Assembly (NCBI GenBank): GCA_902762795.1
Contig: CACWPM010000015.1
Span: 39,639 to 103,638, forward strand
Direction: 5' to 3'
Origin: Fibrobacter succinogenes
GTDB lineage: Bacteria > Fibrobacterota > Fibrobacteria > Fibrobacterales > Fibrobacteraceae
DNA length: 64,000 bases
Shown: positions 4,942 to 63,922 of the stretch, one piece after another
Layout: each line of letters opens with the position of its first letter
How positions within the stretch are numbered: the stretch's first letter is position 1
Program-made: the position numbers and the translations under genes
The notes under the pieces: generated by a model
Databases searched by the model: none
Seen by the model: the letters and a program-made list of their open reading frames with translations, nothing else
What the model was told of the DNA's origin: nothing

Positions 4942-5034
4942 GTGTAGATCCGCAATTAGCGAGTGTCGCGAAAACAAGCTTGCTTGTTTTCATGACCGAG
5001 CTTTAGCGGATAGAACGAAGTACATTCGCGACTT
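4942..5034 (+). repeat. T-core-T'-GNA-T element, copy a, inside the ORF6N gene
   Basis: The core left half is GCGAGTGTCGCG and the right half CATGACCGAGC. They flank the hairpin AAAACAAG-CTTG-CTTGTTTT. The outer stem is ATCCGC with GCGGAT, and a GAA triloop (5017-5019) follows. The two flanks are related coding segments of the host gene (sense: CGGATCTAC and CGAATGTAC, both encoding R-I/M-Y), so part of the target appears duplicated. Confidence 0.7.
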
Positions 5035-5227
5035 GAGCATATTCTCATCAATAAGGGAAAATTCAGACTTTGCCGAAACATCAACTTCGCCAATATTTGT
5101 GGCTGCGGCAACAACTTTTTTCATTTTTCACTCCTTTGCGGAACAAGCTAAAAATCCGCAAATACAAATTCTACGATTACAAAATACACAAATGTTCACC
5201 ATTTGTCAAGAGGTGGATTTTTTTGCA

Positions 5228-5246
5228 GGGATAAGCATAAGGCGAT
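5228..5246 (+). repeat. Truncated core half of the same element family
   Basis: GCATAAGGCGA matches the left core and its flank as seen in copy b, in the opposite orientation. It is then cut off by a GTCATTCC hairpin repeat at 5261. Confidence 0.35.
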
Positions 5247-5260
5247 TCATCACATCGAAT

Positions 5261-5290
5261 TGTCATTCCCGACTTGATCGGGAATCTCCT
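5261..5290 (+). repeat. GTCATTCC...GGAATC hairpin repeat
   Basis: The stem TTCCCGA pairs with TCGGGAA around CTTGA. Short intergenic hairpins anchored by GTCAT recur through the window and resemble repeats known from many bacteria. Confidence 0.6.
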
Positions 5291-5293
5291 TTT

Positions 5294-5391
5294 TATATTG
5301 CCCCCCTTCAGGGTGCATTTAGCATGGCTCAGTCATGCCAACTCATGCAAGCATGGTTGTCGCGACATTCGCCTTATGCTAAATTTCATCA
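5294..5391 (-). repeat. T-core-T'-GNA-T element, copy b
   Basis: On the minus strand the core is GGCGAATGTCGCG ... CATGACTGAGCC around CAACCATG-CTTG-CATGAGTTG. The outer stem ATTTAGCAT pairs perfectly with ATGCTAAAT (9 bp). A GAA triloop joins CACCCT to GGGGGG. The rest of 5392-5658 holds small hairpins (for example at 5500-5522) but no supportable gene. Confidence 0.75.
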
Positions 5392-5658
5392 CGACATAGC
5401 TCCGTACCGAATGGTTCGGAGCGACCGGATTTTTTGAGATTCGTCTCTTATTCTCACAACTGAAACTACCACTTTCAATCAACACGAGGATAAGACGAGC
5501 GCTCACGTCCCTATGGGGCGTGGGTCGTTTGTGCTTATTGTGTTGAAGGGTGTGGTAGCCCGCAGTTGTGATAAGTGCATCGACTCCACGCCTTTTTTAT
5601 TGGATTTCGAAAGCTCTAGAGTAAGTGTCGAATCAGATGCTTACATAAGGAGCTTAGA

Positions 5659-7935
5659 ATGGCAAAGAAAAAGAGTGAAACACAAACAGAAAACTTGTTC
5701 CGTAGCTTTTATGGAACGAATACATTCTTGGAAAAATCAGCCATTCCTGATTTTTATGGTTTTACATCAAAAAGAAAAACTGGTGAAAAAGGATATCCCG
5801 ACTTCTTTAAAGATTGTGACAAATATTGTATAATAGTTGAAGCCAAAGCCGACAATTTCAAATTGGCCATTGACGAAGTCAAATGGTACATGGAACACAA
5901 TTTAATCGAAAACAAGGATATTATTGGTATTGCTATATCAGGTCAAGCCAAAGATAGCATTCAAATAAAATACTTTTGCAAGCTTTTAATAGACGATAAT
6001 TTGTCAAAAATAGATAATTTAACAGATGCAGAAACAATACTCTCTTTAAACAATATTGAAAAAATATACACACGAAAGAAATATGGAGATACAATATCAG
6101 ACGAAGCATTAACAACATTTTTGTCAGAATTAAATAAAAAATTTCACGACAAAAGCAGAGTAAGAGATACAAACAGAAGCTTGTTCTTTTCAGGATTAAT
6201 GATAGCCCTAAACGACAAGACTTTTCAAAAGACCTACAGGAGCATAGAAAAGCCAGAGTCAGGCATTGAGGCCGGCAACTTAAACGAAGCAATTTTAACC
6301 GCAATTACAAACCAATTGAAAGATAAAGCGAACAGTTTTAGTAAAAAAATAGTATGGAAAGACTGCTTCGCATTTATAAGAACCATTAGTTTTCCTTTGA
6401 TTGAATACAAAAGGATTATTAAGGATATAGAAGAAAAAATATTCATTCCATTCAAACACGAAGAAAAATATGACATTCTAGGAAAAGCATATAAGATATT
6501 TTTATCTAGAGCAGGAAAAATTGAAAATAAGAATATCATTTTAACTCCCGATCACATAAAAGATTTAATGGTTAAATTAGCCAATCTATCTGTCGATGAT
6601 GTTGTTTTAGACACGTGTACTGGACCTGGCGGATTTCTAATGTTTGCTTTAGAAAAATTGGTAAGCCTCGCTAATGGAGATGACGATACAATTGAACACA
6701 TAACCAATCACCAATTAATCGGCTTTGAAATAGACCCCGTACTTTATTCCCTCGCTTGTTCAAACATGTTCTTGCACGGCGATGGCAGAAGCAATATGAT
6801 ACACAGAAGCAGTCTACTTGATGTAGATAATCTTGTGGAAGATGATGGGCAAAAACTTTTAAATTACATTCATAGTTTGAAACCAAGAAAGTGCATAATC
6901 AATCCTCCATACGAAAACAACCTCGCCTTTGAATTTGTTTGGTCTGCTATTGACTATTTAGAGCCGGATGGTGAATTAATTGTCATTATGCCATCAATCA
7001 CTTTGGAGCAAAATCAAGAAAAGGCCTCTAAAAGAAAACTGCTAAAAAGCACTGAGAATCTACTGAAAAAAGCAACGTTAAACTTTGAAATTAAGATGCC
7101 TCCAACACTTTTTAGAGAACAAGGAAGGACGATTCAAACTTCTATTTTTGGATTCACAAAAAAACCGCATAACCAAGACAAGAATGTTCTCTTTTACAAC
7201 CTCAAAGACGACGGCTTGGAGAGTATTCAACATAAAGGACGTGTAGATACAAAAAAACAATGGCCACAAAAAGAAGAAGAAATTTTTGATTGCGTTTTAA
7301 ATGGAACAGAAATACCGGGAAAATCATATAAACGAAAAATATTTATCAAAGGTAAACTGGTTTTACAAAATAAACAAAAAACTCAAAAAGGTTTTGTTCC
7401 TATTGGTGATTTATTCAATGTAATCAAAGACCCGCAGCAAATTCAATCGACAAAGAATGTTCCTGGAGACATACCTTTCATTACAGCCGCAATTGAATGG
7501 AAAACGCACAACAAAGCTTCATTCAAAAAGACGGAAGCCTTAGTTTATGTTGTTGGTGCAGAAGGCTCGCTCGGTAATTGTCATTATATTAATGGAGATT
7601 TCACAGCAAGTTCTCTTTGCCTTGTTTTAACAGAAAAGAATAAAGAACAATACCCCGTAAATCTTAAATTTTATCAGTTTTATTTTGAAAGCATTAAACA
7701 AGATGTTCGCAAAGGACTTAACGGTTGGAAAAAGGGAAAATCAAAACAATCAATCAGTCAAAGCCGATTTGAGTCATTCGAAATACCATATACACCAATT
7801 GAAATTCAAAACCAAGTAGTACAAAAAGTAGAGAAAATAAAAAAAGAAATGGAAGATATCGAAAAAAAGAAACATTCGTTGCAAAATCAAATGGATCAAT
7901 TAGTTGATCAGGCATCAAAGCGTACAAACAATTAA
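5659..7935 (+). CDS. Single-chain (type IIG-like) restriction-modification enzyme
   Basis: This 758-residue protein combines three parts. Residues 40-70 carry PD (47-48) and EAK (61-63), the spacing of a PD-(D/E)XK nuclease site. Residues about 290-560 are an HsdM-like N6-adenine methyltransferase, with motif I DTCTGPGGFL near 317 and the catalytic NPPY near 415. Residues about 590-758 look like a target-recognition domain ending in a helical coiled coil rich in Lys and Glu, as in HsdS. The enzyme would methylate and cut the same DNA site without partner subunits. The ATG follows AAGGAG at 8 nt. The gene is far more AT-rich than its neighbours and lies between repeat elements and a broken gene, which suggests horizontal gain. 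The recognition sequence cannot be read from sequence. A methyltransferase with a dead nuclease is the main alternative. Confidence 0.82.
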   Translation: MAKKKSETQTENLFRSFYGTNTFLEKSAIPDFYGFTSKRKTGEKGYPDFFKDCDKYCIIVEAKADNFKLAIDEVKWYMEHNLIENKDIIGIAISGQAKDSIQIKYFCKLLIDDNLSKIDNLTDAETILSLNNIEKIYTRKKYGDTISDEALTTFLSELNKKFHDKSRVRDTNRSLFFSGLMIALNDKTFQKTYRSIEKPESGIEAGNLNEAILTAITNQLKDKANSFSKKIVWKDCFAFIRTISFPLIEYKRIIKDIEEKIFIPFKHEEKYDILGKAYKIFLSRAGKIENKNIILTPDHIKDLMVKLANLSVDDVVLDTCTGPGGFLMFALEKLVSLANGDDDTIEHITNHQLIGFEIDPVLYSLACSNMFLHGDGRSNMIHRSSLLDVDNLVEDDGQKLLNYIHSLKPRKCIINPPYENNLAFEFVWSAIDYLEPDGELIVIMPSITLEQNQEKASKRKLLKSTENLLKKATLNFEIKMPPTLFREQGRTIQTSIFGFTKKPHNQDKNVLFYNLKDDGLESIQHKGRVDTKKQWPQKEEEIFDCVLNGTEIPGKSYKRKIFIKGKLVLQNKQKTQKGFVPIGDLFNVIKDPQQIQSTKNVPGDIPFITAAIEWKTHNKASFKKTEALVYVVGAEGSLGNCHYINGDFTASSLCLVLTEKNKEQYPVNLKFYQFYFESIKQDVRKGLNGWKKGKSKQSISQSRFESFEIPYTPIEIQNQVVQKVEKIKKEMEDIEKKKHSLQNQMDQLVDQASKRTNN

Positions 7936-8002
7936 AGCCCGGGGCGTTGCGGGGCGCGGCGACTGAGCGCCCCGCTCGAAGGGGTGCGCGGATGAATCGG
8001 CT

Positions 8003-8031
8003 AGATTCCGGCTCGGAGGCCGGAATGACGA
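8003..8031 (-). repeat. GTCATTCC hairpin repeat
   Basis: On the minus strand GTCATTCCGGC and GCCGGAATC pair around a short loop. Just before it, 7940-7990 contains a GC-rich stem (GGGGCGC with GCGCCCC) that may terminate the restriction-modification gene. Confidence 0.5.
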
Positions 8032-8045
8032 CGAATAAGAAGCGA

Positions 8046-8146
8046 GGGGACAACTGTATAAGGCGAGCGTTGCGACAGATTGCTCGCAAGCTGTCATAAC
8101 CGAGCCGAACAGTTGAGACTTGAGCGTAGCGAAAGTCTAACGCTTT
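8046..8146 (+). repeat. T-core-T'-GNA-T element, copy c
   Basis: The core is GGCGAGCGTTGCG ... CATAACCGAGCC. The inner hairpin is GACAG-A-TTG CTCG CAA-G-CTGTC, the outer stem AACTGT with ACAGTT, and the final hairpin AGACTTGAGC-GTA-GCGAAAGTCT. All stems differ in sequence from those of the other copies yet pair. Confidence 0.75.
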
Positions 8147-8178
8147 CCCCATCCAATCAAAAAAATTTCAAATTGATA

Positions 8179-8207
8179 TTGACAAACAGTTTCTCTCAAT
8201 TTATATT
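8179..8207 (+). promoter_or_regulatory. Sigma-70-type promoter for the DUF4160 module
   Basis: TTGACA (8179-8184) and TATATT (8202-8207) are separated by 17 bp. This gives a transcript starting about 60 nt before the first gene of the module. Confidence 0.6.
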
Positions 8208-8273
8208 ATAGTGCACAAACGTTCAAAACTTTAAGACCCGCAATTTCAAGCATGTTTGCGGGAAGGAGCAAAA

Positions 8274-8597
8274 ATGACTACTAGCCAAATTAGGCCGAAA
8301 AATGTTATATTGCCCGTAAGCAATATGATGTACCCATTCATGACACTTGACGATAACGCTGAAATAGTCCATTCCGAAATGGGAAAGGACGGTCGCGTCA
8401 AGGTGTACATTGAGAAGCCCGACGCGAAGGACGGCTTCCACCGGGCAACATGCTACTTACCCTCCTATACATGGGAAGATATATTCGGTTTTTCAGATGA
8501 GGAAATCGATCGCTATAAAAAAGTGATTGAGTCTACGGCTCATTTGATAATGGAATTTTCTCAGAAAGGCGGGTTTAGCAATGCCGCAAATCTTTAA
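8274..8597 (+). CDS. Small protein of unknown function, partner of a DUF4160 protein
   Basis: This 107-residue soluble acidic protein starts at the ATG preceded by GGAAGGAG; an upstream in-frame TTG at 8256 lacks such a site. No signal peptide or membrane segment is visible. The middle has beta-strand character (VKVYIEKPD) and the C-terminal half is helical (TWEDIFGFSDEEIDRYKKV). Its 3' end overlaps the next gene by 17 bp, so the two are translationally coupled and share the promoter at 8179. I do not recognise the family. Its position before a DUF4160 gene, which often pairs with a small partner in toxin-antitoxin-like modules, suggests a partner or antitoxin role, but this is inference. Confidence 0.6.
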   Translation: MTTSQIRPKNVILPVSNMMYPFMTLDDNAEIVHSEMGKDGRVKVYIEKPDAKDGFHRATCYLPSYTWEDIFGFSDEEIDRYKKVIESTAHLIMEFSQKGGFSNAANL

Positions 8598-8859
8598 GAT
8601 CGGATCGTTTTGGGTTTATTTCTGGTCTAACGAGAATAATCCGTTAGAACCAATTCACGTCCATGTGTCGGAAGGCACGCCTTCTGCAAACGCAACTAAA
8701 ATTTGGATTACGAAGGCCGGGAAATGCCTCTTGGCTCATAATAATTCGCATATCAACCCGCATGTTTTGCAGAACATTCTCCGAATTATCGAGGCTCGTA
8801 ATGAAGAGGTTGTAAAAAAATGGACGGAATTTTTTAACGAGATATCCTTTTTCTGCTAA
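8581..8859 (+). CDS. DUF4160 domain protein
   Basis: This 92-residue protein matches the DUF4160 pattern: an N-terminal MPQIFKIGSFWVYFWSNE, the conserved HVHV segment (about 27-30), and a C-terminal helix ending VVKKWTEFFNEI. The family is small, cytoplasmic and of unknown biochemical function, and is often found in two-gene modules suspected to be toxin-antitoxin-like. The ATG lies within the end of the preceding gene. The pair stands alone between repeat elements c and d, in keeping with a mobile accessory module. Confidence 0.75.
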   Translation: MPQIFKIGSFWVYFWSNENNPLEPIHVHVSEGTPSANATKIWITKAGKCLLAHNNSHINPHVLQNILRIIEARNEEVVKKWTEFFNEISFFC

Positions 8860-8959
8860 AGACATGTGAATCGCAGAATACTAGCCTTCTCATAGGAATG
8901 CAAAGTTCTTCCCACCATGCTTTTTAAACAGCAATTTTCTCGTCTTTAGTCTCTCGTCT

Positions 8960-9064
8960 ATTTTACTAAATTGGCGCCCTTCGGGCGATTTAGTACGGCT
9001 CGGTCATGACAATTCGTGCAAGCACGATTGTCGCGACGCTCGCCTTTTACTAAATTTGGCGCAT
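8960..9064 (-). repeat. T-core-T'-GNA-T element, copy d, abutting valS
   Basis: On the minus strand the core is GGCGAGCGTCGCG ... CATGACCGAGCC around ACAATCGTG-CTTG-CACGAATTGT. The outer stem is ATTTAGTA with TACTAAAT. The flanks are an almost perfect direct repeat, GCGCCAAATTTAGTAAAA against GCGCCAATTTAGTAAAA, with an inverted copy TACTAAATCGCCC plus GAA between core and second flank. This is the clearest T-core-T'-GNA-T arrangement. It ends 1 bp before the valS start codon. Confidence 0.8.
9051..9058 (+). promoter_or_regulatory. Putative promoter box of valS (TAAATTTG)
   Basis: The box lies 7 nt before the valS ATG and no Shine-Dalgarno is present. It is part of the T flank of element d, so the element has duplicated the promoter box. 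The same TTTACTAAATT sequence lies before dnaE. Confidence 0.45.
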
Positions 9065-9065
9065 T

Positions 9066-11828
9066 ATGGAAATGGAAACTCGTTATAATCCGAAAATTGT
9101 AGAAGACCGTTGGCACGACCAATGGAACAAGAATAATGATTTTGCCCCGAGCGGAAAGGGTGAACCGTTCTCCGTCGTCATTCCGCCTCCGAACGTTACG
9201 GGTGCTCTGCACCTCGGCCACGCTCTGAACGACACGCTGCAGGACATTCTCGTCCGCTATCGCCGTAAGACTGGTCGCGACACGCTCTGGATTCCGGGCA
9301 CGGACCACGCCGGCATTGCCACGCAGGCTGTCGTCGAAAAGAGACTTTTCCAGGACGAACACAAGACACGCCACGACATTGGCCGCGACGCCCTCGTGGA
9401 ACGCATTTGGAAGTGGAAGGACGAATACGAAGCCCGCATCACGAAGCAGCTCAAGAGTCTTGGCGTTAGCTGCGACTGGAGCCGTCAGCGCTTCACGCTC
9501 GACCCGGTTTGCGCAAAGGCCGTCCGCCACGCATTTTTCAACCTTTTCAAGAAGGGTCTTATCTACCGTGGCAAGCGTCTCGTGAACTGGGACACCAAGC
9601 TCCAGACCGCTGTGGCAGACGATGAAATTTATTACGAAACAGTGAAGGGTCACTTCTGGACGTTCAAGTATCCTCTCGCCGACGGTTCGGGCTTTATCCC
9701 GGTTTCGACGACTCGTCCGGAAACGATCATGGGCGATACGGCTCTCGCTGTGCACCCGAACGACGAACGTTACAAGCAGTTCATCGGCAAGATGCTCAAG
9801 GTTCCGTTCGTGAACCGCGAAATTCCGGTGATTGCAGACGCTATCCTCGTCGATATGGAATTCGGTACGGGTTCCGTGAAGGTGACTCCGGCTCATGACC
9901 CGAACGACTACGCTACGGGCCTCCGCCACAAGCTCCCGATGATCAACATCATGAACGACGACGGCAGCCTCAACGAAAACGCCGGTCCGTTCCAAGGGAT
10001 GAAGGGCCAGGCTGCACGCGACGCCGTGGTGAAGGGTCTCGAAGATCTCGGCCTCCTCATCAAGATTGAAGACCACGAAATGCAGGTGGGTCACTCCGAC
10101 CGTTCCAAGACTGTGATTGAACCGTACTTGAGCGACCAGTGGTTCGTGAAGATGGACGTCCTCGCCGACAACGCCATGAAGGCTGTCACAAGCGGCGAAA
10201 TCAAGATCATTCCGGAACGTTATGCAAACAAGTACCTCGACTGGCTCAAGGAAAAGCGCGACTGGTGCATCAGCCGTCAGCTCTGGTGGGGCCACCGCAT
10301 TCCTATTTGGCACGCCGACGAAACGACGACCGAAGAGGACTTGAACAAGGCATTCGCAGGCCGTAACGACATTTACTATTACAAGGCACAGAACGGCATC
10401 TGGCTCATCTGCTCCGAAGAAGAAAACCTCTCCGAAGACGCTGTTGCCGGTCACAAGATTGTTCAGGAAGAAGACGTGCTCGACACGTGGTTCTCCAGTG
10501 GTCTCTGGCCGCACTCCACGATGGGCTGGCCGGAACAGACGGACACGCTCAAGAAGTACTATCCGACTTCCGTGCTTGTGACGAGCCGCGACATCATTAC
10601 GCTCTGGGTCGCCCGCATGGTGCTCTTCAGCCAGGAAAACATGGGCACGGTTCCGTTCCACACGGTGTATATCCACCCGAAGATTTTGGACGGCAATGGC
10701 ATGACCATGAGCAAGTCCAAGGGCAACGGCGTGGACCCGATGGATATCGAAAAGAAGTACGGCACGGACGCTCTCCGCTTCGTGATGGCAAGCCTCTGCA
10801 CCGACAACCAGGACGTCAGACTCCCGGTGAAGAAGGAAAAGCAGGAAGACGGCACAGTCATCAACACCAGCGAAAAGTTCGAAATTGGTCGTAATTTCTC
10901 GAACAAGCTCTGGAACGCTTGCCGCTTCTTGTTCCCGCACTTGGAACAGGCAGGCGCACTTTCCAAGGAAATGCTCCCGATGGATTCTTCGATCTTCGCA
11001 CTCGAAGACCGCTGGATTCTCTCTCGCTTGAACTCCACCATCCAGGACGCAACGAAGATGCTCGAAGAGTTCCACTTTGCTGAACTCGCCGGCTTCCTCT
11101 ACCGCTTTGTGTGGGACGATGTCTGCTCAAGCTACTTGGAAATCAAGAAGGCCGTGATCAACAGCGAAACGCTCACCGCCGAAAAGAAGAACGCTATGGC
11201 AATCCTCAGCCACGTGCTCCGCGGCGTGATCGACCTGTTGCATCCGGTGATGCCGTTCATCACGGAAGAACTGAACGCAACGCTCTTCCCGGGTTCTGAA
11301 CGCGTGATCAACAGCGCATGGCCGAAGGCTGACACGAGCCTCATCGACGCCAAGATCGAAGCCGCTTTCAACCAGGCATTCGCTGTCGTGGAAAGCGTGC
11401 GTGGCGTGCGCGGTCGCTACAACGTAAGCCCGGCTACCAAGCTCAAGGCTGTAGTGAGCGTCGATACCGCCGAAACCGAAGCAAGCGTGAAGGACTGCCA
11501 GGCTATCATCACCGAACTCGGTGGACTTGAATCGTTCTCTGTGGCCGTGAAGGCTGCAAAGCCGAAGTTCAGCGCAAGCTCCGTGGTGCCGGGAGGCGAA
11601 CTCTACATCCCGCTCGAAGGTATCCTTGACCCGGCTGCAGAAATCGCACGCCTCGAAAAGGAAATTGAAAAGGCCAAGGCTTTCGCCGCTTCTATCGAAC
11701 GCAAGTTGTCGAATGAAAAGTTTGTCAATGGCGCACCTGAAGCAGTTGTCAATGCGGAACGTGTAAAGTTGGCTACTCAGCAGGATATCATCGCCAAAAA
11801 CGAAGCGGCATTGAAAGAACTGAAGTAG
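9066..11828 (+). CDS. valS: Valine--tRNA ligase
   Basis: This 920-residue class I aminoacyl-tRNA synthetase charges tRNA-Val in the cytoplasm. The HIGH signature is the HLGH in PPPNVTGALHLGHAL (about 43-57). The KMSKS signature is MTMSKSKGNG near 545. An editing domain with TTRPET lies between them, an anticodon-binding domain follows, and the C-terminus is the coiled-coil arm typical of ValRS. The ATG lacks a Shine-Dalgarno. The last about 36 codons (from 11718) have codon choices unlike the rest of the gene. A second, better-matching copy of these codons (11926-12036) lies downstream beyond repeat element e. The gene is complete, but its 3' end may have been replaced. Confidence 0.97.
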   Translation: MEMETRYNPKIVEDRWHDQWNKNNDFAPSGKGEPFSVVIPPPNVTGALHLGHALNDTLQDILVRYRRKTGRDTLWIPGTDHAGIATQAVVEKRLFQDEHKTRHDIGRDALVERIWKWKDEYEARITKQLKSLGVSCDWSRQRFTLDPVCAKAVRHAFFNLFKKGLIYRGKRLVNWDTKLQTAVADDEIYYETVKGHFWTFKYPLADGSGFIPVSTTRPETIMGDTALAVHPNDERYKQFIGKMLKVPFVNREIPVIADAILVDMEFGTGSVKVTPAHDPNDYATGLRHKLPMINIMNDDGSLNENAGPFQGMKGQAARDAVVKGLEDLGLLIKIEDHEMQVGHSDRSKTVIEPYLSDQWFVKMDVLADNAMKAVTSGEIKIIPERYANKYLDWLKEKRDWCISRQLWWGHRIPIWHADETTTEEDLNKAFAGRNDIYYYKAQNGIWLICSEEENLSEDAVAGHKIVQEEDVLDTWFSSGLWPHSTMGWPEQTDTLKKYYPTSVLVTSRDIITLWVARMVLFSQENMGTVPFHTVYIHPKILDGNGMTMSKSKGNGVDPMDIEKKYGTDALRFVMASLCTDNQDVRLPVKKEKQEDGTVINTSEKFEIGRNFSNKLWNACRFLFPHLEQAGALSKEMLPMDSSIFALEDRWILSRLNSTIQDATKMLEEFHFAELAGFLYRFVWDDVCSSYLEIKKAVINSETLTAEKKNAMAILSHVLRGVIDLLHPVMPFITEELNATLFPGSERVINSAWPKADTSLIDAKIEAAFNQAFAVVESVRGVRGRYNVSPATKLKAVVSVDTAETEASVKDCQAIITELGGLESFSVAVKAAKPKFSASSVVPGGELYIPLEGILDPAAEIARLEKEIEKAKAFAASIERKLSNEKFVNGAPEAVVNAERVKLATQQDIIAKNEAALKELK

Positions 11829-11835
11829 TATTCCA

Positions 11836-11930
11836 ATGACAAATGCGTAAGGCGAGAGTCGCGGGCAAATTTATTTGCACATGACCGAGCCCAGCATTTG
11901 GTACTTGAGCGAAGCGAAAGTACCAAAGTT
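11836..11930 (+). repeat. T-core-T'-GNA-T element, copy e, after valS
   Basis: The core is GGCGAGAGTCGCG ... CATGACCGAGCC around GCAAA-TTTA-TTTGC. The outer stem is AAATGC with GCATTT, and the final hairpin is GGTACTTGAGC-GAA-GCGAAAGTACC. It separates the present valS stop from a second copy of the valS 3' end. Confidence 0.8.
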
Positions 11931-12036
11931 CGTGAACGGAGCTCCGGAAGCTGTCGTGAACGCCGAACGCGTGAAGCTCGCTACACAGCAGGCCATCATC
12001 GCAAAGAGTACTAAGGCACTCGAAGAACTTCGCTAA
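11926..12036 (+). pseudogene. Detached second copy of the valS 3' end
   Basis: The 36 codons AAG TTC GTG ... CTT CGC followed by TAA encode KFVNGAPEAVVNAERV and onward. They share 30 of 36 residues with the present valS end. Among the first 22 identical residues, 15 codons differ synonymously. The GTG, AAC and CTC choices match the body of valS, and the downstream terminator at 12119 follows this copy. It is therefore best read as the original gene end, displaced when element e and a new end arrived. Confidence 0.85.
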
Positions 12037-12065
12037 CAGCGGGCTCGCGGATTGTGTCATCTAGG

Positions 12066-12100
12066 CCCTTCGACAAGCTCTGGGTAAACTCCGTCGAAGG
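12066..12100 (+). repeat. CCTTCGACAAGCTC-type inverted repeat
   Basis: CCTTCGAC and GTCGAAGG form a hairpin. The same sequence type recurs at 36271-36321. Confidence 0.5.
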
Positions 12101-12118
12101 ATCTAAAAAACATTAAGC

Positions 12119-12147
12119 AGGCACTCCGTATGGAGCGCCTGTTTTTG
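12119..12147 (+). terminator. Rho-independent terminator (ancestral valS)
   Basis: GGC-A-CTCC pairs with GGAG-C-GCC around GTAT and is followed by TTTTT. From 12150 to 12599 there is only AT-rich DNA with the possible operators listed below. Confidence 0.7.
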
Positions 12148-12371
12148 TTTATACGCACTCAATCGAAGACGCTACGGGCGCAAGTGCCATTCATTACTTA
12201 ACAAGAACCAGCATCTCTGCAGTTTAAAGCCGAGTTCGACTACAAGCACACTTATTTTTCCACCATTTTAAGACAAATCCATCGTAACAAAAAAAATCCA
12301 CTTTGCAATCCTGAAAAAAGCGACCAAGCCCCCATTAATCGACTTCATAAATGTAAATTTTTCTTATCATA

Positions 12372-12454
12372 ACACATGTGTTTTCACGTATTTTGCGTAT
12401 CATAATCATAGAAAAAATACATATTTCCGTACTATACGAAACATTTTCACGTAT
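12372..12454 (+). promoter_or_regulatory. Possible operator pair
   Basis: TTTTCACGTAT occurs at 12381 and again at 12444, 63 bp apart, next to the palindrome ACACATGTGT. It lies in a very AT-rich gap before the lipoprotein gene. The binding protein is unknown. Confidence 0.3.
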
Positions 12455-12556: not shown

Positions 12557-12599
12557 GAATACAGAACACAACGCAGAATACAAACAGGAGGATATTCTG

Positions 12600-46559: not shown

Positions 46560-46632
46560 CGACAAAACTTGTTTTGGCATGACCGAGACTAGCATTTGGG
46601 ACAAGAGCAAAGCGATTGTTTAAAGACGAGAG
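46560..46632 (+). repeat. T-core-T'-GNA-T element, copy f (5'-truncated)
   Basis: CAAAA-CTTG-TTTTG is followed by GCATGACCGAG and the final hairpin ACAAGAGC-AAA-GCGATTGT. The left core is missing. A further 3' fragment is repeated at 46845. Confidence 0.6.
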
Positions 46633-46687
46633 ACGAGAGAATTTTATGAAAATGTAGGCAGTTGGAAGTAGGCAGTAGGAAGTAGGA

Positions 46688-46790
46688 CAAACCCCTGTAA
46701 GGCGAGTGATGCATGAAAATTTATTTTCGTATATCCGAGCCAAAAGGGTTGCACGAAGTGCAAATGCGTAGGTCGAGCATCGCGGCCACG
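46688..46790 (+). repeat. T-core-T'-GNA-T element, copy g, with start of a second unit
   Basis: Core GGCGAGTGATGCA ... ATCCGAGCC around GAAAA-TTTA-TTTTC. Outer stem AACCC with GGGTT. Final hairpin TTGCAC-GAA-GTGCAA. Another left core (GTCGAGCATCGCG) starts at 46772 and is cut by a GTCATCC repeat. Confidence 0.65.
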
Positions 46791-46813: not shown

Positions 46814-47062
46814 ATACAGTCCTGTATACGCTTGTATATTTTTGGACCGAGACTAGCATTTGGGACAAGAGCAAAGCGATTGTTTAAAGACGAGAGACGA
46901 GAGAATTTTATGAAAATGTAGGCAGTTGGAAGTAGGAAGTAGACAGTAGGAAGTAGTTAGTGGTTATAAGAAAACTTGATATAAAATTTTCTGGTAACTA
47001 GTAACTCGAAACTCACAACTGCCGCGAAGCGGTTTCTGCAACTAATAACTTAGAACTCTTAA

Positions 47063-58532: not shown

Positions 58533-58600
58533 GTTTTTTGCGCCTCTTAAGCGCGAGGTTCATATAGCAAAGGATATAGACAACGGATATAAAAAATTAT

Positions 58601-58642
58601 GGATCCCGTTGCATCGGCCTCACGGTCTTGCTCCAGGATGAC
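58601..58642 (-). repeat. GTCATCC...GGATCC repeat
   Basis: The ends match the dispersed family: AGTCATCCTGGAGCAAG on one side and GGGATCC on the other on the minus strand. It overlaps the end of the adjacent gene's frame. Confidence 0.5.
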
Positions 58643-59642
58643 TATTCGCGGGTTCTACCGGCGCAGGCTTCTGCCCCACCAAAAATGCAACCGCGCCAAA
58701 CAAGCTCAAAATCAAACTTACAAAATAAGCAAGCAACTGGATTACGACAGATTCAAGCCCAGGCACGCCCGCACGCGCAAAAAGCGACTGAGCCAAGAAT
58801 TCACGCGGACCAAAACCGCCTATCGAAATCGGAAGCGCACTCACAATAGCGACAAGCGGGATGTAATAGAAATACCACGACATCGAGAGGGTCACGCCAA
58901 CCGCAATTCCGCAGAAGAAATGCACAAAAATGCGAAGCGACTGAGTGACCGTCGAAAGGCAAATAATGTTCACCCAAAGCTTCTTGGAGCGGAACTTTTG
59001 GAAGCGGTCGAACATGCGGAGAAGTCTCGTCTCTATTTTTTCCGGCAAAAACTTCCCTGCCATGCGACAGAAAAATTTGCCAATGCGACGGCTCAAAAGT
59101 CCGGCAAACATCACGCAGAAACCCATGAAAATCCAAACGGAAGGCCATATAAATGCACGTTGTTCAGAATCGTATACAAAGAACAAGGCACCGACCGCAA
59201 GAGCAAACAACGTAATAAAGAAAAGTCCGAACAGGCGGTCGAACACCGTTGCCGTGAAACCAGCACCGACCGAATCTTGCCCGCCCTGCATACGGATGTC
59301 ATAGACCTTTTTCACATCACCGCCAACGTTCCCCGGCATAAAGTTATTGAAGAACAACCCGACGTGATAAAGCTTGAGGAGACGGCCGTACTTCATGCGA
59401 ACGCCCTGTTTTTCAAGCAACAGTTTCCACTGGTAGCAAGCGGTAAAGTTCGAAACCGCAAGGCATAGCAATGCAAGGAAAAGCGGGATAACACTATCGT
59501 TTTTAAACAGCCTATACAGGTCGCCCACATCCCATTCCGGGTCATTCACGATGTTACAATAAACAAAATAAGCAGGAACAAGCGTTACCACTAGTTTTAA
59601 GCAAAAAACAATTAACGACTTGAACTTCGGATTCAACTTCAT
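58620..59642 (-). CDS. Flippase-like membrane protein (UPF0104 family), second copy
   Basis: This 340-residue membrane protein has the same family pattern as 50362: NNFMPGNVGGDVKKVYDIR and ALPISIGGFGPREF, with about eight membrane segments. Its ATG overlaps the stop of the glycosyltransferase upstream by 4 bp. In this operon it may move the lipid-linked product made by the glycosyltransferase. The last residues run into a GTCATCC repeat, so the C-terminal tail (after LVGQKPAPVEPAN) is probably repeat-derived. Confidence 0.8.
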   Translation of the reverse strand: MKLNPKFKSLIVFCLKLVVTLVPAYFVYCNIVNDPEWDVGDLYRLFKNDSVIPLFLALLCLAVSNFTACYQWKLLLEKQGVRMKYGRLLKLYHVGLFFNNFMPGNVGGDVKKVYDIRMQGGQDSVGAGFTATVFDRLFGLFFITLFALAVGALFFVYDSEQRAFIWPSVWIFMGFCVMFAGLLSRRIGKFFCRMAGKFLPEKIETRLLRMFDRFQKFRSKKLWVNIICLSTVTQSLRIFVHFFCGIAVGVTLSMSWYFYYIPLVAIVSALPISIGGFGPREFLAQSLFARAGVPGLESVVIQLLAYFVSLILSLFGAVAFLVGQKPAPVEPANSHPGARP

Positions 59643-60808
59643 TTTCGAACGTTCCCCTCAACAGTACGTTCTAATAAATATAGAGTTTCGCAAGCAGACT
59701 TTTCCCAGCTGAACGATTCGGCGTAGCGTTTTGCCGCAAGACCAAGAGTCTTGCGCAATTGATTATCGCCATAAATCTTTTCCATTGCATTTGCGCATGC
59801 GGCCGCATCTCCCGACGGAAACAGAATTCCCGTCTCGCCATCACGGACGCTATCGCAGAGTCCCGGCACATCGGATGCAATCGTTGTCTTGCAAAGCTGA
59901 GCCGCTTCCATCACGGTAAGGCCCCAGCCCTCCTTATAGCTTGTCTGCAGCAATGCGAGCGATGACGAAAGCAGCTCGTACTTGCGAGCGGCAGAAACAT
60001 AGCCCGTCAATTCCACTTTGCCGTCTAGTCCATGCGCTTTAATCCACGACGGGAGCTTTTTCAAAAGCGGACCGTCGCCAACGACATACAGCTTGACTTC
60101 GGGGTGCAACTTCGAAAATTTTTCAAATGCTTCCAGTGCCGTCCAAATACCCTTGTAACGGTGCACACGCGAAAGCCAGATGAAACAAGGTTCCGCGACA
60201 TCCGATTCACGAGAGTCCGCAGCGTTTTCACAAGATTCCGCGCCCCTCGTCGCAATGTTCGCACCACCCGGGACATTCGGCTTTTCGGACCCATTGTAAA
60301 TTACGGTAATGCGGCTTTCATCCACGCCAATTTCCGCAAGTTCCTTCTTGGTACTCGGACTCACCACGATAAACGGCTGCGTGCGATAAAAGAACGGAAT
60401 AATCCGCTCAAAGAACCAAACTCCAAACGCGACCGGGAAAAACGCCTCTGCAAAAATCGACCCCCGCCACAAGTGATGCATCTGCACCAGGAGCGGCTTG
60501 CGGACGAACCAGTGGGCAAAGACCGGTAACTTGTTCAAATCTTCGACAACAACGTCAAAGTTGAATTCGCGGTCCAGCTTTTTCAGATTCAGCGCCACCG
60601 TGAATTGGAACATCAAGTCGCCACCCTTGCGGACGACCTGAATTCCATCGACAACCTCACGTTCCTTAGCGCCCGGAAATGTCGTCGTAAACAGAACCAC
60701 CGTGTGGCCCATTTCTACAATCTTTCCGAAAATGCGATGCAAATGCTTTTCGGCCCCACCGGCAGCCGGATGCATGCGATCCCGATAATTTACGACGAGA
60801 ATTTTCAA
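59639..60808 (-). CDS. Glycosyltransferase, GT4-type
   Basis: This 389-residue GT-B enzyme starts with KILVVNYRDRMHPAAGGAEKHLHRI, the acceptor-side Gly-rich loop. The donor-side region is YVVGDGPLL and TSYKEGWGLTVMEAAQ. It starts at TTG and lies 8 bp after the methyltransferase gene and 4 bp into the flippase-like gene. The three act together on a lipid-linked or surface glycan. Confidence 0.88.
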   Translation of the reverse strand: MKILVVNYRDRMHPAAGGAEKHLHRIFGKIVEMGHTVVLFTTTFPGAKEREVVDGIQVVRKGGDLMFQFTVALNLKKLDREFNFDVVVEDLNKLPVFAHWFVRKPLLVQMHHLWRGSIFAEAFFPVAFGVWFFERIIPFFYRTQPFIVVSPSTKKELAEIGVDESRITVIYNGSEKPNVPGGANIATRGAESCENAADSRESDVAEPCFIWLSRVHRYKGIWTALEAFEKFSKLHPEVKLYVVGDGPLLKKLPSWIKAHGLDGKVELTGYVSAARKYELLSSSLALLQTSYKEGWGLTVMEAAQLCKTTIASDVPGLCDSVRDGETGILFPSGDAAACANAMEKIYGDNQLRKTLGLAAKRYAESFSWEKSACETLYLLERTVEGNVRK

Positions 60809-60816
60809 GCGACTAC

Positions 60817-61593
60817 CTAAGGTTTACGGCCAATCACACCTATGCAAAGCTGCGTGTAATGCATCACCGGCACAGACTGGAGAGAATCCAAAATCTTGTC
60901 CTTAATCTTCTGGTAAGCCGTTCCGTCCAGCGGATACTTCGGGAGCTCAATACCGAACTTGAAGCAAAGCTCGCGCAGAATGCGGTAGTAAAGGTTCGGG
61001 CGCATCCAGTCGCCATAAGCGTAAACGCATTCAAAGCCAGCATCGCGCATGAGTTGCTTGAGTTGCCCCATCGTGAACTGTTTTTCCCAACCGGCAAACC
61101 ACTTATCGAGCGCAATCAAGATATGCTTGATAACCGTGTACGGGTGAACGGTCTGCGGAACGTCACAAAGACAGCAACCGCCGTGCTTGACAATGCGGAA
61201 ATTCTCTTGCAAGAGCGGCAGCGAATCCTTGAAATGCTCAGCCAACCCCTGGTGGAACACCAAGTCAAAAGTGTTGTCCGGGAACGGAGACTTGAACGCA
61301 TCGCCACGCACCAGGTGCAAATTTTTGAGTCCTTCGCTCTCGCGGAGCGAATTGACAATTTTCAAGCTGTTGTCGGCAAAATCCAGCACATAGACATCAG
61401 CCCCCAGACGAGCGAGTTCAGCGCTGTCGCGGCCGGTACCTGCGCCGACCTCCAAAACCTTCAAGCCTTCGAGCTTAAAATTCTTCTTAATAGCTTCTAT
61501 AATAGACGGCGAAGACGGATAGACCTTGTCCATGTCGTTCTTACGCTGCCAAAAACGGTTCCATACGGATTGATCAGGCTCTTTTATTGACAT
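60817..61593 (-). CDS. Class I SAM-dependent methyltransferase
   Basis: This 258-residue protein has the SAM-binding motif LEVGAGTGRDSAELAR (about 45-60), the acidic end of strand 2 (VLDFAD) and a post-motif VFHQGLAEHF. It is typical of small-molecule or glycan methyltransferases. It is first in the operon with the GT4 and flippase-like genes, so a sugar or lipid-linked substrate is likely. A TATATT box lies 9 nt before the ATG, with no Shine-Dalgarno. Confidence 0.8.
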   Translation of the reverse strand: MSIKEPDQSVWNRFWQRKNDMDKVYPSSPSIIEAIKKNFKLEGLKVLEVGAGTGRDSAELARLGADVYVLDFADNSLKIVNSLRESEGLKNLHLVRGDAFKSPFPDNTFDLVFHQGLAEHFKDSLPLLQENFRIVKHGGCCLCDVPQTVHPYTVIKHILIALDKWFAGWEKQFTMGQLKQLMRDAGFECVYAYGDWMRPNLYYRILRELCFKFGIELPKYPLDGTAYQKIKDKILDSLQSVPVMHYTQLCIGVIGRKP

Positions 61594-61615
61594 AACGGGG
61601 ATAATATATGAAAAT

Positions 61616-61701
61616 TTGGTAGTAGGAAGTAGGAAGTAGGAAGTTAGAAGTAGGCAGTAAGCGGTGGTTAGTGGTTGGTGGTTAGTGATTAGTGGTTAGG
61701 A
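61616..61701. repeat. Seven-base-period array
   Basis: Units AGTAGGA (x3), AGTTAGA, AGTAGGC, AGTAAGC, then GGTGGTT/AGTGGTT units, all at 7-bp steps. It lies between two genes and is not coding. Confidence 0.85.
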
Positions 61702-61795
61702 TTTGTCATGCCAGCAACTTTGTCATGCCCGCCATCCTCGCCCCCGTCATCCTCGAAGCTTGTCATTCTCGACCGGAGGGAGGGAAACCATCATT
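61701..61795 (+). repeat. Degenerate GTCATCC/GTCATGCC repeat cluster
   Basis: GTCATGCC, GTCATCCTCG and GTCATTCTCG occur in series. The remaining gap to 62219 has a hairpin at 61977-62001 (CTATGTTCAT with ATGAACACATAG) but no supportable gene. Confidence 0.5.
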
Positions 61796-62219
61796 TCTTG
61801 GATTGCACTTGCGTAGGGGAACCATTATTTCTCGTATATTCGTTTGGGAGGGAAACCATACGAAAGTTATTGGCAGAAGGATCCGGTAAAGTTTCAAGTT
61901 AGAAGTACGGGAAAAACGTATTGCAAAATGAAACATCATCCTCTTACTCGCCTGTCGGCAGACAGGGAAGAAAATTCTCTATGTTCATAATGAACACATA
62001 GACAACGCACCCTTTACATTTCCTTCCTACTTTCGACCATCTACGATGACAATCTTTCAAAGCACAACGATCAGTGTTGTCACTTTTCGAAGAATTTGTT
62101 ATATTTTTACGACATTTTTCATGAAATCAAACAGTTAAGCCGAGGCCAACATTGATTTAAAACATCAAAAAAGCTCCATTTGAGTCCATTTTGTAAAAAA
62201 TTTGGAAAATTTTACACAA

Positions 62220-62236
62220 TTGGCACGCAACTTGCT
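62220..62236 (+). promoter_or_regulatory. Sigma-54-type (-24/-12) promoter of the sigma-factor gene
   Basis: TTGGCACGCAACTTGCT fits TGGCACG-N4-TTGCW with GG and GC exactly 10 bp apart. RNA would start about 25 nt before the ATG, just ahead of an AAGG leader. Confidence 0.65.
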
Positions 62237-62271
62237 TTAAAAAAGCGATATTATAAGGGCAAGGTTTTAAA

Positions 62272-63084
62272 ATGCATATTGATTCTACCGATACCACTCT
62301 CAAAAGATACCTAGAAGATATCCGTCGTACCGCACCCCTCTCCCGCGAAGAAGAACAGATACTTTTCCAAAAAGCTAAAGAAGGCGATAAAATCGCCCGT
62401 AAAAAACTCATTTCTGCAAACATGCGTTTCGTGCTCAAGGTCGCCATCCAGTACCGTGGCTGTCCGATTCCGCTGCCGGACTTGGTCAGCGAAGGCGCTA
62501 TGGGCCTCGTCCGCGCTATCGAATCCTTCGAACATACCCGTGGTCTTAAATTCATCAGCTACGGCGTTTGGTGGATCAAGGCATACATCACTCGTGCAAT
62601 CAACGAACAGGGCAACCTTATCCGTCTGCCGGCAAACCAGCACCTCCGCGTGCGCAAGGCTTTGCACGAGCAGTCCCGCGGTAAGGAAATCAACGAAGAA
62701 ATCCGTGAATTGATCCAGATCGGTCAGCGCGGCGTTTCGTTCGACAGCCCGCTCAAGGCAGACTCCAAGGCAACTTACGCCGAAGTCCTCCCGGACAGTG
62801 GCGCTTCGAACCCGGAAGCCGATTCCGAAATCCAGAGCGTCGAAGCTTTGGCCCGCGACCTCATGGAACAGCTCCCGGAACGCGAAGCTCGAGTCATCAC
62901 CGGCATTTTCGGCATCAACCAGGAAGCTCCGCAGACACTGCGCGAAGTGGGCGAATCCATGAACATTTCCCACGAACGTGTGCGTCAGTTGCGCGACCAG
63001 GCTCTCCGCCGTATCCGCAAGTACAACAGCAAGGACTTCTTGCAAGAAAAGAAGGACGCATTCCTCGCTGCGATCAATAAGTAG
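62272..63084 (+). CDS. rpoD: RNA polymerase sigma-70 factor, primary type (RpoD/SigA-like)
   Basis: This 270-residue sigma factor lacks region 1.1 but has region 1.2 (LKRYLEDIRRTAPLSREEE), region 2 (ANMRFVLKVAIQYRG, FISYGVWWIKAYITRAI), region 3 and region 4 with the helix-turn-helix LREVGESMNISHERVRQL. The short form equals the primary sigma of the related Bacteroidota. The last codons ATC AAT AAG TAG are repeated as ATC AAC AAG TAG in each unit of the downstream array. It may be a group 2 sigma, given the sigma-54-like promoter. Confidence 0.93.
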   Translation: MHIDSTDTTLKRYLEDIRRTAPLSREEEQILFQKAKEGDKIARKKLISANMRFVLKVAIQYRGCPIPLPDLVSEGAMGLVRAIESFEHTRGLKFISYGVWWIKAYITRAINEQGNLIRLPANQHLRVRKALHEQSRGKEINEEIRELIQIGQRGVSFDSPLKADSKATYAEVLPDSGASNPEADSEIQSVEALARDLMEQLPEREARVITGIFGINQEAPQTLREVGESMNISHERVRQLRDQALRRIRKYNSKDFLQEKKDAFLAAINK

Positions 63085-63685
63085 CAAGCCGAGAGTCGCG
63101 CGCAAACCGAAGGCTTGCGCATGACCGAGGCGAAGCACTTATGTATGCGAAGCATCAACAAGCAGCAAGCCGAGAGTCGCGCGCAAACCGAAGGCTTGCG
63201 CATGACCGAGGCGAAGCGCTTATGTATGCGAAGCATCAACAAGTAGCAAGCCGAGAGTCGCGCGCAAACCGAAGGCTTGCGCATGACCGAGGCGAAGCGC
63301 TTATGTATGCGAAGCATCAACAAGCAGCGAGCCGAGAGTCGCGCGCAAACCGAAGGCTTGCGCATAACCGAGGCGAAGCACTTATGTATGCAAAGCATCA
63401 ACAAGTAGCAAGTCGAGAGTCGCGACCATGTTTACATGGTCATAACCGAGGCGAAGCACTTATGTATGCAAAGCATCAACAAGTAGCAAGTCGAGAGTCG
63501 CGACCATGTTTACATGGTCATAACCGAGGCGAAGCGCTTATGTATGCGAAGCATCAACAAGTAGCGAGCCGAGAGTCGCGCGCAAACCGAAGGCTTGCGC
63601 ATGACCGAGGCGAAGCACTTATGTATGCAAAGCATCAACAAGTAGCAAGTCGAGAGTCGCGCGCAAACCAAAAACAAACTTGCCA
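63070..63685 (+). repeat. Tandem array of about 7.5 T-core-T'-GNA-T elements after rpoD (copy i)
   Basis: Cores start at 63088, 63169, 63250, 63331, 63412, 63490, 63568 and 63649 (truncated), giving 78- or 81-bp periods. Each unit reads SCGAGAGTCGCG - inner hairpin - CATRACCGAGG - GCACTTATGTATGC - GAA - GCATCAACAAGTAGC. Units 5 and 6 have GACCATG-TTTA-CATGGTC as inner hairpin instead of the GCGCAA...TTGCGC stem of the others. Every unit ends in a copy of the rpoD end (ATC AAC AAG, then TAG or CAG). The array lies between the rpoD stop and its terminator, so it is transcribed as a long structured 3' UTR. Confidence 0.9.
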
Positions 63686-63717
63686 TGCCCCGCTCCGACG
63701 GGGCATCCCCTTTTTAA
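63684..63717 (+). terminator. Terminator after the array
   Basis: ATGCCCC and GGGGCAT pair and are followed by CCCCTTTTT. Confidence 0.65.
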
Positions 63718-63728
63718 CAACTATTTAT

Positions 63729-63756
63729 AGCCCTCGACTGATTCGAGGGTATTTTT
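63729..63756 (+). terminator. Second terminator
   Basis: CCCTCGA and TTCGAGGG pair and are followed by TATTTTTG. It is nearly the same as the thrC terminator. Confidence 0.65.
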
Positions 63757-63922
63757 GCAGACGGTTGTTTGCAGAACAACCTGCTACTCGGTCATGTCAA
63801 CCCAAGCAAGCTTGGTTGCCGCGACGCTCGTGCAAACAATTATTTGTAGAACAACCTGCTACTCGGTCATGTCAACCCAAGCAAGCTTGGTTGCCGCGAC
63901 GCTCGTGCAAACGGTTGTTTGC
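63756..63922 (-). repeat. Two tandem T-core-T'-GNA-T elements (copy j)
   Basis: On the minus strand two units at 75-bp period share CACGAGCGTCGCG ... CATGACCGAGTA around CAACCAAG-CTTG-CTTGGGTTG. Three copies of a local sequence (AACAACCGTTTGC or close) bracket the two cores, each facing an inverted copy (GCAGGTTGTT). They face the array after rpoD in the opposite orientation. From 63923 to the window end I see nothing that can be called. Confidence 0.75.

What the first reader, a model, noticed from the sequence alone, without database searches (positions are those of the whole stretch)
4942..63922. A dispersed structured DNA element family with locus-specific arms (T-core-T'-GNA-T)
About ten loci share a split core: GGCGAGNGTCGCG, then a hairpin, then CATGACCGAGCC. 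The hairpin stem is different at nearly every locus but pairs each time, usually with a CTTG or TTTA loop. Outside the core, the left flank T pairs with the sequence T' after the core (for example ATTTAGCAT/ATGCTAAAT, ATTTAGTA/TACTAAAT, AAATGC/GCATTT, AACTGT/ACAGTT). T' in turn pairs across a GNA triloop with a second copy of T. Such covariation in three stems means structure is kept while sequence changes, and T' is an inverted copy of local target DNA. A plain insertion sequence cannot carry arms matching each target, so templated copying (snap-back or template switching) at insertion is an attractive inference. I know no named family with this layout.
Basis: partly seen in the sequence, partly recalled or inferred. 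Interest (0 to 1): 0.93.

Follow-up and report, generated by a model that had tools for sequence, protein, structure and literature searches.

The report
Hairpin elements with target-copied arms
Fibrobacter genomes carry scattered DNA hairpins, often dozens each, that keep one folded shape while nearly every paired base changes, and whose outer arms are at several sites inverted copies of the DNA they sit in, likely made by snap-back copying when each hairpin arrived.

Summary
A covariance model finds 15 matches at 8 places in the window and matches in 80 of 80 genomes of its genus; MAGs titled Spirochaetes, Treponema and Bacillota groups carry the same core. The fold is P1 (arms T/T'), P2, P3, P4, then a second hairpin P5, often C-GNA-G. 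All 16 core pairs change on both sides (96.6% paired, 68.1% shuffled). P1 of 6 bp or more occurs in 28 of 65 non-redundant copies, 0.9% when arms are swapped. At 5 of 7 resolved sites an element-free relative already has T; T' comes only with the element, and T or a similar sequence follows again. The two exceptions belong to a subclass that carries its own arms. No Rfam match, no clear gene-orientation preference, few G-U pairs, no link to Y1 transposases. Best reading: a DNA-level, probably single-strand-folding mobile element whose T' is copied from its flank by hairpin-primed synthesis. The enzyme is unknown; guide-like target choice is not excluded.

The parts
4948..4953 (+). T1 = ATCCGC, left P1 arm; sits in an ORF6N-domain gene
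   Evidence: present once at the site in element-free G112 (L219); ATTCGA in element-free G126 (L220); gene domain
4954..5005 (+). core (P2, P3, P4 and internal loops)
   Evidence: 65.7 bits; DNA fold z = -3.5
5006..5011 (+). T' = GCGGAT, inverted copy of T1
   Evidence: absent at the site in L219 and L220
5012..5023 (+). P5, imperfect hairpin with GAA loop
5024..5029 (+). T2 = ATTCGC, second copy of T (one difference)
5317..5384 (-). element: T' 5317-5325, core 5323-5377 (model span), T1 5376-5384; P5 lies below 5317
   Evidence: 53.5 bits
8052..8114 (+). element: T1 8052-8057, core 8058-8109 (model span), T' 8109-8114
   Evidence: 67.1 bits
8964..9055 (-). element upstream of the valyl-tRNA synthetase gene: T2 8964-8971, P5 8972-8987, T' 8988-8995, core 8994-9048 (model span), T1 9048-9055
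   Evidence: element-free site L207; (60.5 bits)
11840..11924 (+). class A element at the 3' end of the valyl-tRNA synthetase gene: T1 11840-11846, core 11847-11894 (model span), T' 11894-11900, P5 11900-11924
   Evidence: 44.5 bits
46578..46599 (+). 3' half of a class A core plus its T' side (truncated copy)
46697..46744 (+). core with P3 = GAT/ATC (covarying variant)
   Evidence: 46.8 bits
63084..63661 (+). tandem array of 7 full units (81 or 78 bp) plus a terminal half core, just after the stop codon of a sigma-70-like gene
   Evidence: core-free L231-L233 and single copy L236
63782..63911 (-). two tandem copies, 75 bp unit
   Evidence: 39.0 bits each

Best explanation
This is a dispersed family of short DNA hairpins, with 15 copies in this window, whose outer arms are at several sites inverted copies of DNA that element-free relatives also have there, likely because the folded hairpin primes copying of that DNA. 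Shown: one strand can form P1-NNAA/GNA-P2-GA/GA-pair-N-P3-GC/AT-P4, followed by P5, and the helices covary. Shown at five sites: T exists in an element-free relative, T' exists there only with the element, and T or a similar sequence stands on the far side as well. Inferred: the element acts as a folded single DNA strand and an unknown protein reads its unpaired motifs. Inferred: once the core is joined to the 3' side of T1, its 3' end, held next to T1 by P2-P4, is extended by a polymerase along T1 and so makes T'. A second turn at the C-GNA-G hairpin P5 would then lead back into T2 and the original downstream sequence. The product has the order of a miniature inverted triplication (T, T', T) with a hairpin at each turn. 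The class with GACAA...TTGG ends would move with ready-made arms.
For: Filled and element-free pairs. Site 4948-5029: GATCCGCGACTTG in G112 against GATCCGC-core-GCGGAT-P5-ATTCGCGACTTG. Site 8964-9055: L207 carries TTTTACTAAATTTGGCGC once; the window carries it, with small differences, on both sides with ATTTAGTA between. L037: the gene end of 11 core-free relatives (no model match) against AGTAATC-core-GATTACT, and in L369 -hairpin-ACTAATG. L026 locus: AAATATAG in L349 and L351, TATAT inside T'. Site 63084: ATAAGT at the gene end of core-free L231 and L232, ACTTAT in T'. Arm pairing: 28 of 65 with 6 bp or more against 0.9% swapped, maximum 4.7% in 500 swaps. 64 different T' (first six bases) among 128 copies with P1 of 5 bp or more; seven P4 hairpins recur with clearly different T' that still match their own T1 (one search lists eight, one of them only a shifted class A arm). 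Beside the parS-like GTTTCACGTGAAAC, whole 4-bp blocks of T1 and T' change together in 25 of 28 places with a second half core, some with nearly the same P4. DNA rather than RNA: 10 wobbles in 624 cells, P4 G.T 7 against A.C 9, no clear orientation preference, C-GNA-G loops 23 of 35.
Against: Two of seven resolved sites (L012 minus strand; window 11840) show no T in the element-free relative. At the L026 locus only 5 of the 7 bases of T' match the old target, and G060 holds a decayed copy there (L348), so L349/L351 might be losses. At 63084 half-core remnants in L234, L235 and L237 mean that the site may have been occupied before. In general, treating element-free as older is an assumption. 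No enzyme was found. 30 of 65 non-redundant copies have a P1 run under 5 bp and 30 of 65 lack a 5-bp P5. P4 differs between copies at one and the same site, so a shared P4 does not prove recent common descent. Plain copying would erase the GA/GA and GC/AT mismatches, so the core must be kept by something else. In alignment A1 G.T outnumbers A.C, 10 to 4, a small lean towards tolerated wobble. DNA folding of five copies gives z from -1.1 to -3.5, not uniformly strong.
Confidence: 0.5

Rival explanations
1. Guide choice: the element carries T' and inserts only where the target can pair with it, much as IS200/IS605 ends or intron guides choose targets. T/T' complementarity then reflects selection of the site, not copying.
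For: A 6-8 nt guide would have many chance targets in 4 Mb (arithmetic). Class A shares one T' over 13 left-flank contexts. Several AT-rich T' resemble each other (TACTAAAT, ATGCTAAAT, GTTATAT), and L352 holds the same T/T' as the 9041 site at another place.
Against: 64 distinct T' among 128 copies, and seven P4 hairpins occur with clearly different T', so T' would have to change completely between jumps. At the two class A/C sites resolved, where T' is of the shared kind, the element-free relatives lack T at the junction.
Confidence: 0.2
2. Replication error alone: hairpins and inverted triplications arise and are corrected by polymerase template switching (quasipalindrome correction, small inverted triplications), with no dedicated element or enzyme.
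For: The T-T'-T order is that of small inverted triplications (PMC13334657, abstract and Discussion). Template switching makes multi-base compensatory changes (PMC8794818, abstract and start of introduction). Blocks of 4 bp change at once beside the parS-like site.
Against: One spacer is a conserved structured core found at dispersed loci and in MAGs of several phyla, whereas error spacers would be arbitrary. Template switching would make the arms perfectly complementary, yet GA/GA, GC/AT and the bulged N are kept.
Confidence: 0.15
3. Structured RNA: a cis-acting or dispersed non-coding RNA kept by compensatory evolution.
For: Very strong covariation. CTTG is also a known stable RNA tetraloop (recalled). 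Spirochaete copies often end in a terminator-like hairpin (by eye). G.T 10 against A.C 4 in A1.
Against: Contexts ++ 23, +- 20, -- 20, -+ 12 (34 more with a gene on one side or none), 58 of 167 inside naive ORFs, no test of the counts; few G-U pairs; target-derived arms; no Rfam match.
Confidence: 0.08
4. Ordinary REP or MITE moved by a Y1 transposase, inserted into palindromes that were already present.
For: Short, dispersed, palindromic, tens of copies, partly clustered. REP elements inserted inside palindromes are described for T. roseum and H. neapolitanus (PMC3733652, passages).
Against: The element-free sites checked hold no T' at the junction. No fixed GTAG or CGTC tag. Exact-core copy number is unrelated to Y1 presence, mean 9.0 (27 genomes) against 8.2 (53), p = 0.70. 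Only 2 of 8 Y1 loci have an element within the 3 kb held, both at the same gene end.
Confidence: 0.07

Closest known systems
REP / BIME elements and their tyrosine transposases (RAYT, TnpA-REP)
   Same: short hairpins, dispersed, tens of copies or more; probably processed as single strands
   Different: no fixed GTAG/CGTC foot, no consistent linked Y1/RAYT gene, helices vary freely, outer arms match the local target
Small inverted triplications (DUP/INV/DUP) and ODIRA-type template switching
   Same: order T, T' inverted, T; fold-back as a possible step
   Different: much shorter arms (P1 runs of about 5-9 bp, T copies up to about 17 bp, against medians near 150 bp in PMC13334657); the spacer is a conserved structured element found at many loci
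MITEs and Rickettsia palindromic elements (largely recalled)
   Same: small non-autonomous palindromic repeats that can land in coding sequence
   Different: no fixed terminal inverted repeats in most copies; identity lies in internal mismatches
Integron attC sites (recalled, not fetched)
   Same: recognition by fold with a variable terminal hairpin and extrahelical bases
   Different: no RYYYAAC/GTTRRRY boxes in alignment A1; integrases were not searched for
Organellar repetitive hairpin and double-hairpin elements (sponge mitochondria, PMC2800124, seen only in the search listing)
   Same: repeated hairpins in intergenic DNA
   Different: no relation tested

Membership tests
REP (GTAG or CGTC super-families) | unpaired GTAG or CGTC tetranucleotide at one foot of the hairpin | tested here: not met
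   J2 is GAGN with N = A, T, C or G (80, 55, 48, 2 with CGA, of 222), so no fixed CGTC; no fixed GTAG in alignment A1
REP (GTAG or CGTC super-families) | linked RAYT/Y1 transposase | tested here: not met
   53 of 80 genus genomes show no PF01797 yet carry about as many exact-core copies; elements near 2 of 8 Y1 loci, one shared gene end
REP (GTAG or CGTC super-families) | short dispersed palindromic repeat in tens of copies | tested here: met
MITE | conserved terminal inverted repeats | tested here: not met
   64 distinct T' in 128 copies; class A/C is closer to this with CAA/TTG ends (by eye)
MITE | target site duplication | tested here: inconclusive
   T flanks both ends at 4948-5029 and 8964-9055; T1/T2 direct repeats of 7 nt or more in 23% against 5.7% swapped, maximum 14.8%; none clear at L012 minus
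Small inverted triplication | T, inverted T, T order | tested here: met
   window 4948-5029 and 8964-9055
Small inverted triplication | arises at arbitrary sites with arbitrary spacer | tested here: not met
   the spacer is one covarying structured core
Integron attC | R boxes RYYYAAC / GTTRRRY | tested here: not met
   no such columns in alignment A1; box consensus recalled
Known structured RNA family | score above an Rfam gathering threshold | tested here: not met
   0 matches in the whole window; 6 of the loci then held, E up to 1, gave one weak hit (E 0.7) away from the element
cis-regulatory RNA | fixed orientation to a gene | tested here: not met
   naive ORFs, no statistical test

The most novel reading that the evidence does not exclude
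A new kind of mobile element that has almost no sequence of its own in its helices: it is inherited as a shape made of mismatch motifs in single-stranded DNA, and at each landing its folded end primes two snap-back copyings, so that it grows its own arms from the target and leaves a miniature inverted triplication. The same shape has spread through Fibrobacterota, Spirochaetota and Firmicutes.
Probability: 0.38. Interest if true: 0.94.

Novelty: categorically new. Interest (0 to 1): 0.86.

Why it matters
If arms are copied from each target, this is a bacterial element whose movement includes self-primed copying of host DNA, a route to perfect palindromes and compensatory changes in one step. 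It also gives a system with natural filled and element-free sites in which fold-back copying, so far discussed mainly for yeast and cancer rearrangements, can be tested directly. A fold recognised only through mismatches would point to an undescribed single-strand DNA-binding enzyme shared by several phyla.

Tried and rejected
Y1 transposase as the mover: no association, and nearby elements at only 2 of 8 Y1 loci. Insertion into pre-existing palindromes: no T' at the junction in the element-free sites checked. Viral or plasmid carriage: the viral scan gave 11 stretches without a paired P4 by eye, read as chance; one 201-bp window query had no plasmid match. High-GC genome hits such as Sphingomonas and Agromyces have no P4 pairing by eye and were read as chance. 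Plain fixed-register P1 counting was weak (35% against 24% paired) because the spacer length varies; the anchored-run test allows for that. The first clustering chained 83 of 167 copies into one cluster, so its 49% against 10% is superseded. Sites left unresolved for element-free relatives: 5317, 8052, 46697, 63782, L012 plus strand, and the C24 region.

Selection effects to know: one search used 65 copies left from 202 after removing 41 class A/C and 16 class B copies and near-duplicates; the set of 202 was meant to be Fibrobacteraceae but its filter lets in L162 (Oscillospiraceae) and L174 (Paceibacterota), whose titles I saw only. Alignment A1 took only copies with a 22-nt P4, and the scan behind it required GA, GC, AT and GA at fixed places and at least 85% P4 pairing, so the invariance of those columns and the P4 pairing are partly by construction; P2 and P3 pairing were not required. 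One search scored at most 53 candidates per genome, so counts near 53 are lower bounds. The 400 kb were picked away from the 41 exact-core places, so underestimates density. Copy numbers used against Y1 are of the exact core only.

Mended on checking: 'eight' recurring P4 groups became seven, the 400-kb sample is no longer called unchosen, the habitat of the out-of-phylum MAGs is no longer named, and orientation is 'no clear preference'.

No paper on a Fibrobacter family of this kind appeared in the listings; related mechanisms were sought. Seen: PMC13334657 abstract and Discussion; PMC3733652 and PMC6006769 passages; PMC8794818 abstract and start of introduction; PMC10766183 abstract and section list. 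The other papers were seen only in search listings.
Full report
What was checked. Both half cores are far above chance in the window. A structural scan that looks for P2, GA, P3, GC, P4, AT, P3', GA, P2' finds 12 places and none in 20 Markov controls. A covariance model built from 39 dissimilar copies finds 15. In the window's own genome the exact core occurs 41 times and 0 times for the reversed pattern. The model finds at least 53 copies there (capped at 53 scored) and 9 in twenty 20-kb stretches picked away from those 41 places, so density is underestimated; on reading, two of the nine are doubtful (L428 19148-19194 lacks the GC/AT loop, L432 17577-17609 is a partial match).

Distribution. 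The exact core occurs in 83 of 167 genomes of the window's phylum, 74 of 80 in its genus; the model in 93 of 111 family genomes, 80 of 80 in the genus and 0 of 12 in genus g4. Outside the phylum the same core with a paired P4 occurs in records titled Treponema, Spirochaetes, Oscillospiraceae, Clostridiales, Bacillota, Peregrinibacteria and an unnamed bacterium bin, up to 26 copies in one spirochaete bin. There too P1 differs from locus to locus: TTTCC/GGAAA, TTGTC/GACAA, TTCGCC/GGCGAA, CAGCC/GGCTG (by eye). The model, built from phylum copies, matches 23 of the 23 such loci given to it (26 matches); I gave it 23 of the 65 such loci held.

Anatomy. On a gap-free alignment of 39 copies, all 16 pairs change on both sides, 96.6% of cells pair (shuffles 68.1%, slid partners 36.5-40.7%), with 10 G-U cells in 624. 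P3 appears as GTC/GAC, GTT/AAC, GCA/TGC, GAA/TTC, GCT/AGC, AAG/CTT and others; of 78 copies whose P3 is not GTC/GAC, 64 pair fully. GAGN/CGA alternates with GAAN/TGA, so the third base is a pair and what remains unpaired is GA opposite GA and one bulged base. The next loop is GC opposite AT. P4 loops are mostly CTTG (48 of 95) and TTTA (12). P5 follows T' directly: 35 of 65 non-redundant copies have a stem of 5 bp or more against 8.2 expected (maximum 17); 24 of the 35 loops are GNA and 23 are C-GNA-G. From memory, tandem GA in a Y-GA-R context and C-GNA-G loops are unusually stable in DNA; no call tested this (one literature search returned only a DNAzyme paper, seen as a listing).

Arms. In 65 non-redundant copies, 35 have an anchored P1 run of 5 bp or more (54%) and 28 of 6 bp or more (43%); when left and right arms of different copies are combined the means are 3.4% and 0.9%, the maxima over 500 shuffles 9.8% and 4.7%. 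T1 and T2 share 7 nt or more in 23% against 5.7% (maximum 14.8%). So the arms belong to the locus.

Filled and element-free sites; 20 of the 22 relatives' loci checked have no model match anywhere, the other two (L208, L300) have one away from the site. (1) Window 4948-5029, inside an ORF6N-domain gene: element-free G112 and G126; T' = reverse complement of ATCCGC, T repeated as ATTCGC. (2) Window 8964-9055: element-free L207 is collinear on both sides; L208 also has the exact T without an element at it, several other relatives have T with one difference. The same site in L212 holds a copy with different P4, P3 and P5. (3) L037 locus, last codons and stop of a gene: 11 relatives without the core, 3 with it; AGTAAT is exact in 6 of the 11. 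(4) L026 locus: L349 and L351, 5 of 7 bases of T' from the old target; G060 has a decayed copy there. (5) Window 63084: core-free L231 and L232 carry ATAAGT at the same gene end; L236 has one unit; the window has seven and a half; half-core remnants in L234, L235 and L237 suggest an older occupation. Against: (6) L012 minus strand, site element-free in L300, where CAACTATA/TATAGTTG came with the element; (7) window 11840, class A, where relatives without the element lack CAAATGC at the junction. Both exceptions have GACAA...TTGG ends. Sites 5317, 8052, 46697, 63782, L012 plus strand and the C24 region were not resolved. Element-free is taken as older throughout; this was not tested with outgroups.

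A natural series beside a parS-like site. GTTTCACGTGAAAC lies directly next to the left half-core pattern in 24 of 80 genomes, 35 places. Of 31 distinct places read, 28 have a second half core, and in 25 of these the first four bases after the palindrome have their reverse complement just after the core: AGTC/GACT, ATGC/GCAT, GCCT/AGGC, GTCC/GGAC, ATCC/GGAT, CTTA/TAAG, ATTC/GAAT, GTTC/GAAC, ATAC/GTAT; L401, L405 and L406 do not. AGTC, ATGC and GCCT occur with nearly the same P4. That the motif is parS is recalled, not tested. These blocks look like copied arms rather than base-by-base compensation, but recombination between copies would also do it.

DNA or RNA. There is no clear preference of orientation to genes (++ 23, +- 20, -- 20, -+ 12, 34 others; 58 of 167 inside naive ORFs; no test). 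P4 G.T and A.C mismatches are similar (7 and 9 in 577 positions), though A1 has 10 against 4. Single-strand DNA folding gives P1 to P4 roughly as drawn in the five copies tried, z from -1.1 to -3.5. I therefore favour a DNA structure but not strongly.

Mechanism. Two things must be explained together: a core whose mismatches are conserved, and arms that follow the target. Template switching alone explains the second and would destroy the first. Selection on a structure alone explains the first but not arms equal to sequence that element-free relatives also have. Joining of a protein-recognised folded core to a 3' end at T1, self-primed extension along T1, and a second turn at P5 explains both; every step beyond 'T without T' in relatives, T with T' here' is inference. 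Guide choice of targets is the main rival; the recurrence of one P4 with clearly different T' (7 groups) speaks against it, weakened by evidence that P4 differs at fixed sites.

Known families. No Rfam match. No fixed REP tag and no linked Y1 gene. The order T-T'-T matches small inverted triplications, but with a conserved element as spacer. I file it as a new kind, with the reservation that the moving enzyme is unknown and movement itself is inferred from filled and element-free sites.

Noticed in passing
window 11800-12040; L202, L203, L213, L218: The 3' end of the valyl-tRNA synthetase gene is followed by one or more displaced, divergent copies of the same gene end, each preceded by a class A element, like a row of alternative C-terminal cassettes.
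   Followed up: partly
L294, L388-L417 (G000:C24:19112-21329): A parS-like palindrome GTTTCACGTGAAAC is flanked on one or both sides by elements or their left half in 24 of 80 genus genomes.
   Followed up: partly
L002, L032, L131, L138, L144, L179 right flanks: A second small hairpin family (TATACGAAACT..GCC..TTTA..GGC..AGTTGAGTTATCC, approximate) sits where the P5 loop of several elements would be.
   Followed up: no
window 46581-46672 and 46845-46936: An exact 92-bp direct repeat carries the 3' end of a class A element into two places; the region is also full of AGTAGGAAGTAGGCAGTAGG purine repeats.
   Followed up: partly
L271, L276, L282, L254 (spirochaete G173): Spirochaete copies have more fixed ends (TTATT..., then AAAGGGT...ACCCTTTAT) resembling a terminator hairpin, sometimes with extra hairpins inserted in it.
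   Followed up: no
window 4176-5130: The element at 4948 interrupts an ORF6N-domain gene that is uninterrupted at that place in G112 and G126.
   Followed up: partly
window 63649-63700; L234, L235, L237: A half core, decayed in some genomes, lies without partner downstream of the same sigma-factor gene; the tandem array ends in it.
   Followed up: partly
L070, L075: In two genomes of another genus of the family an IS200-like Y1 gene lies about 200 bp from an element at the same gene end.
   Followed up: partly
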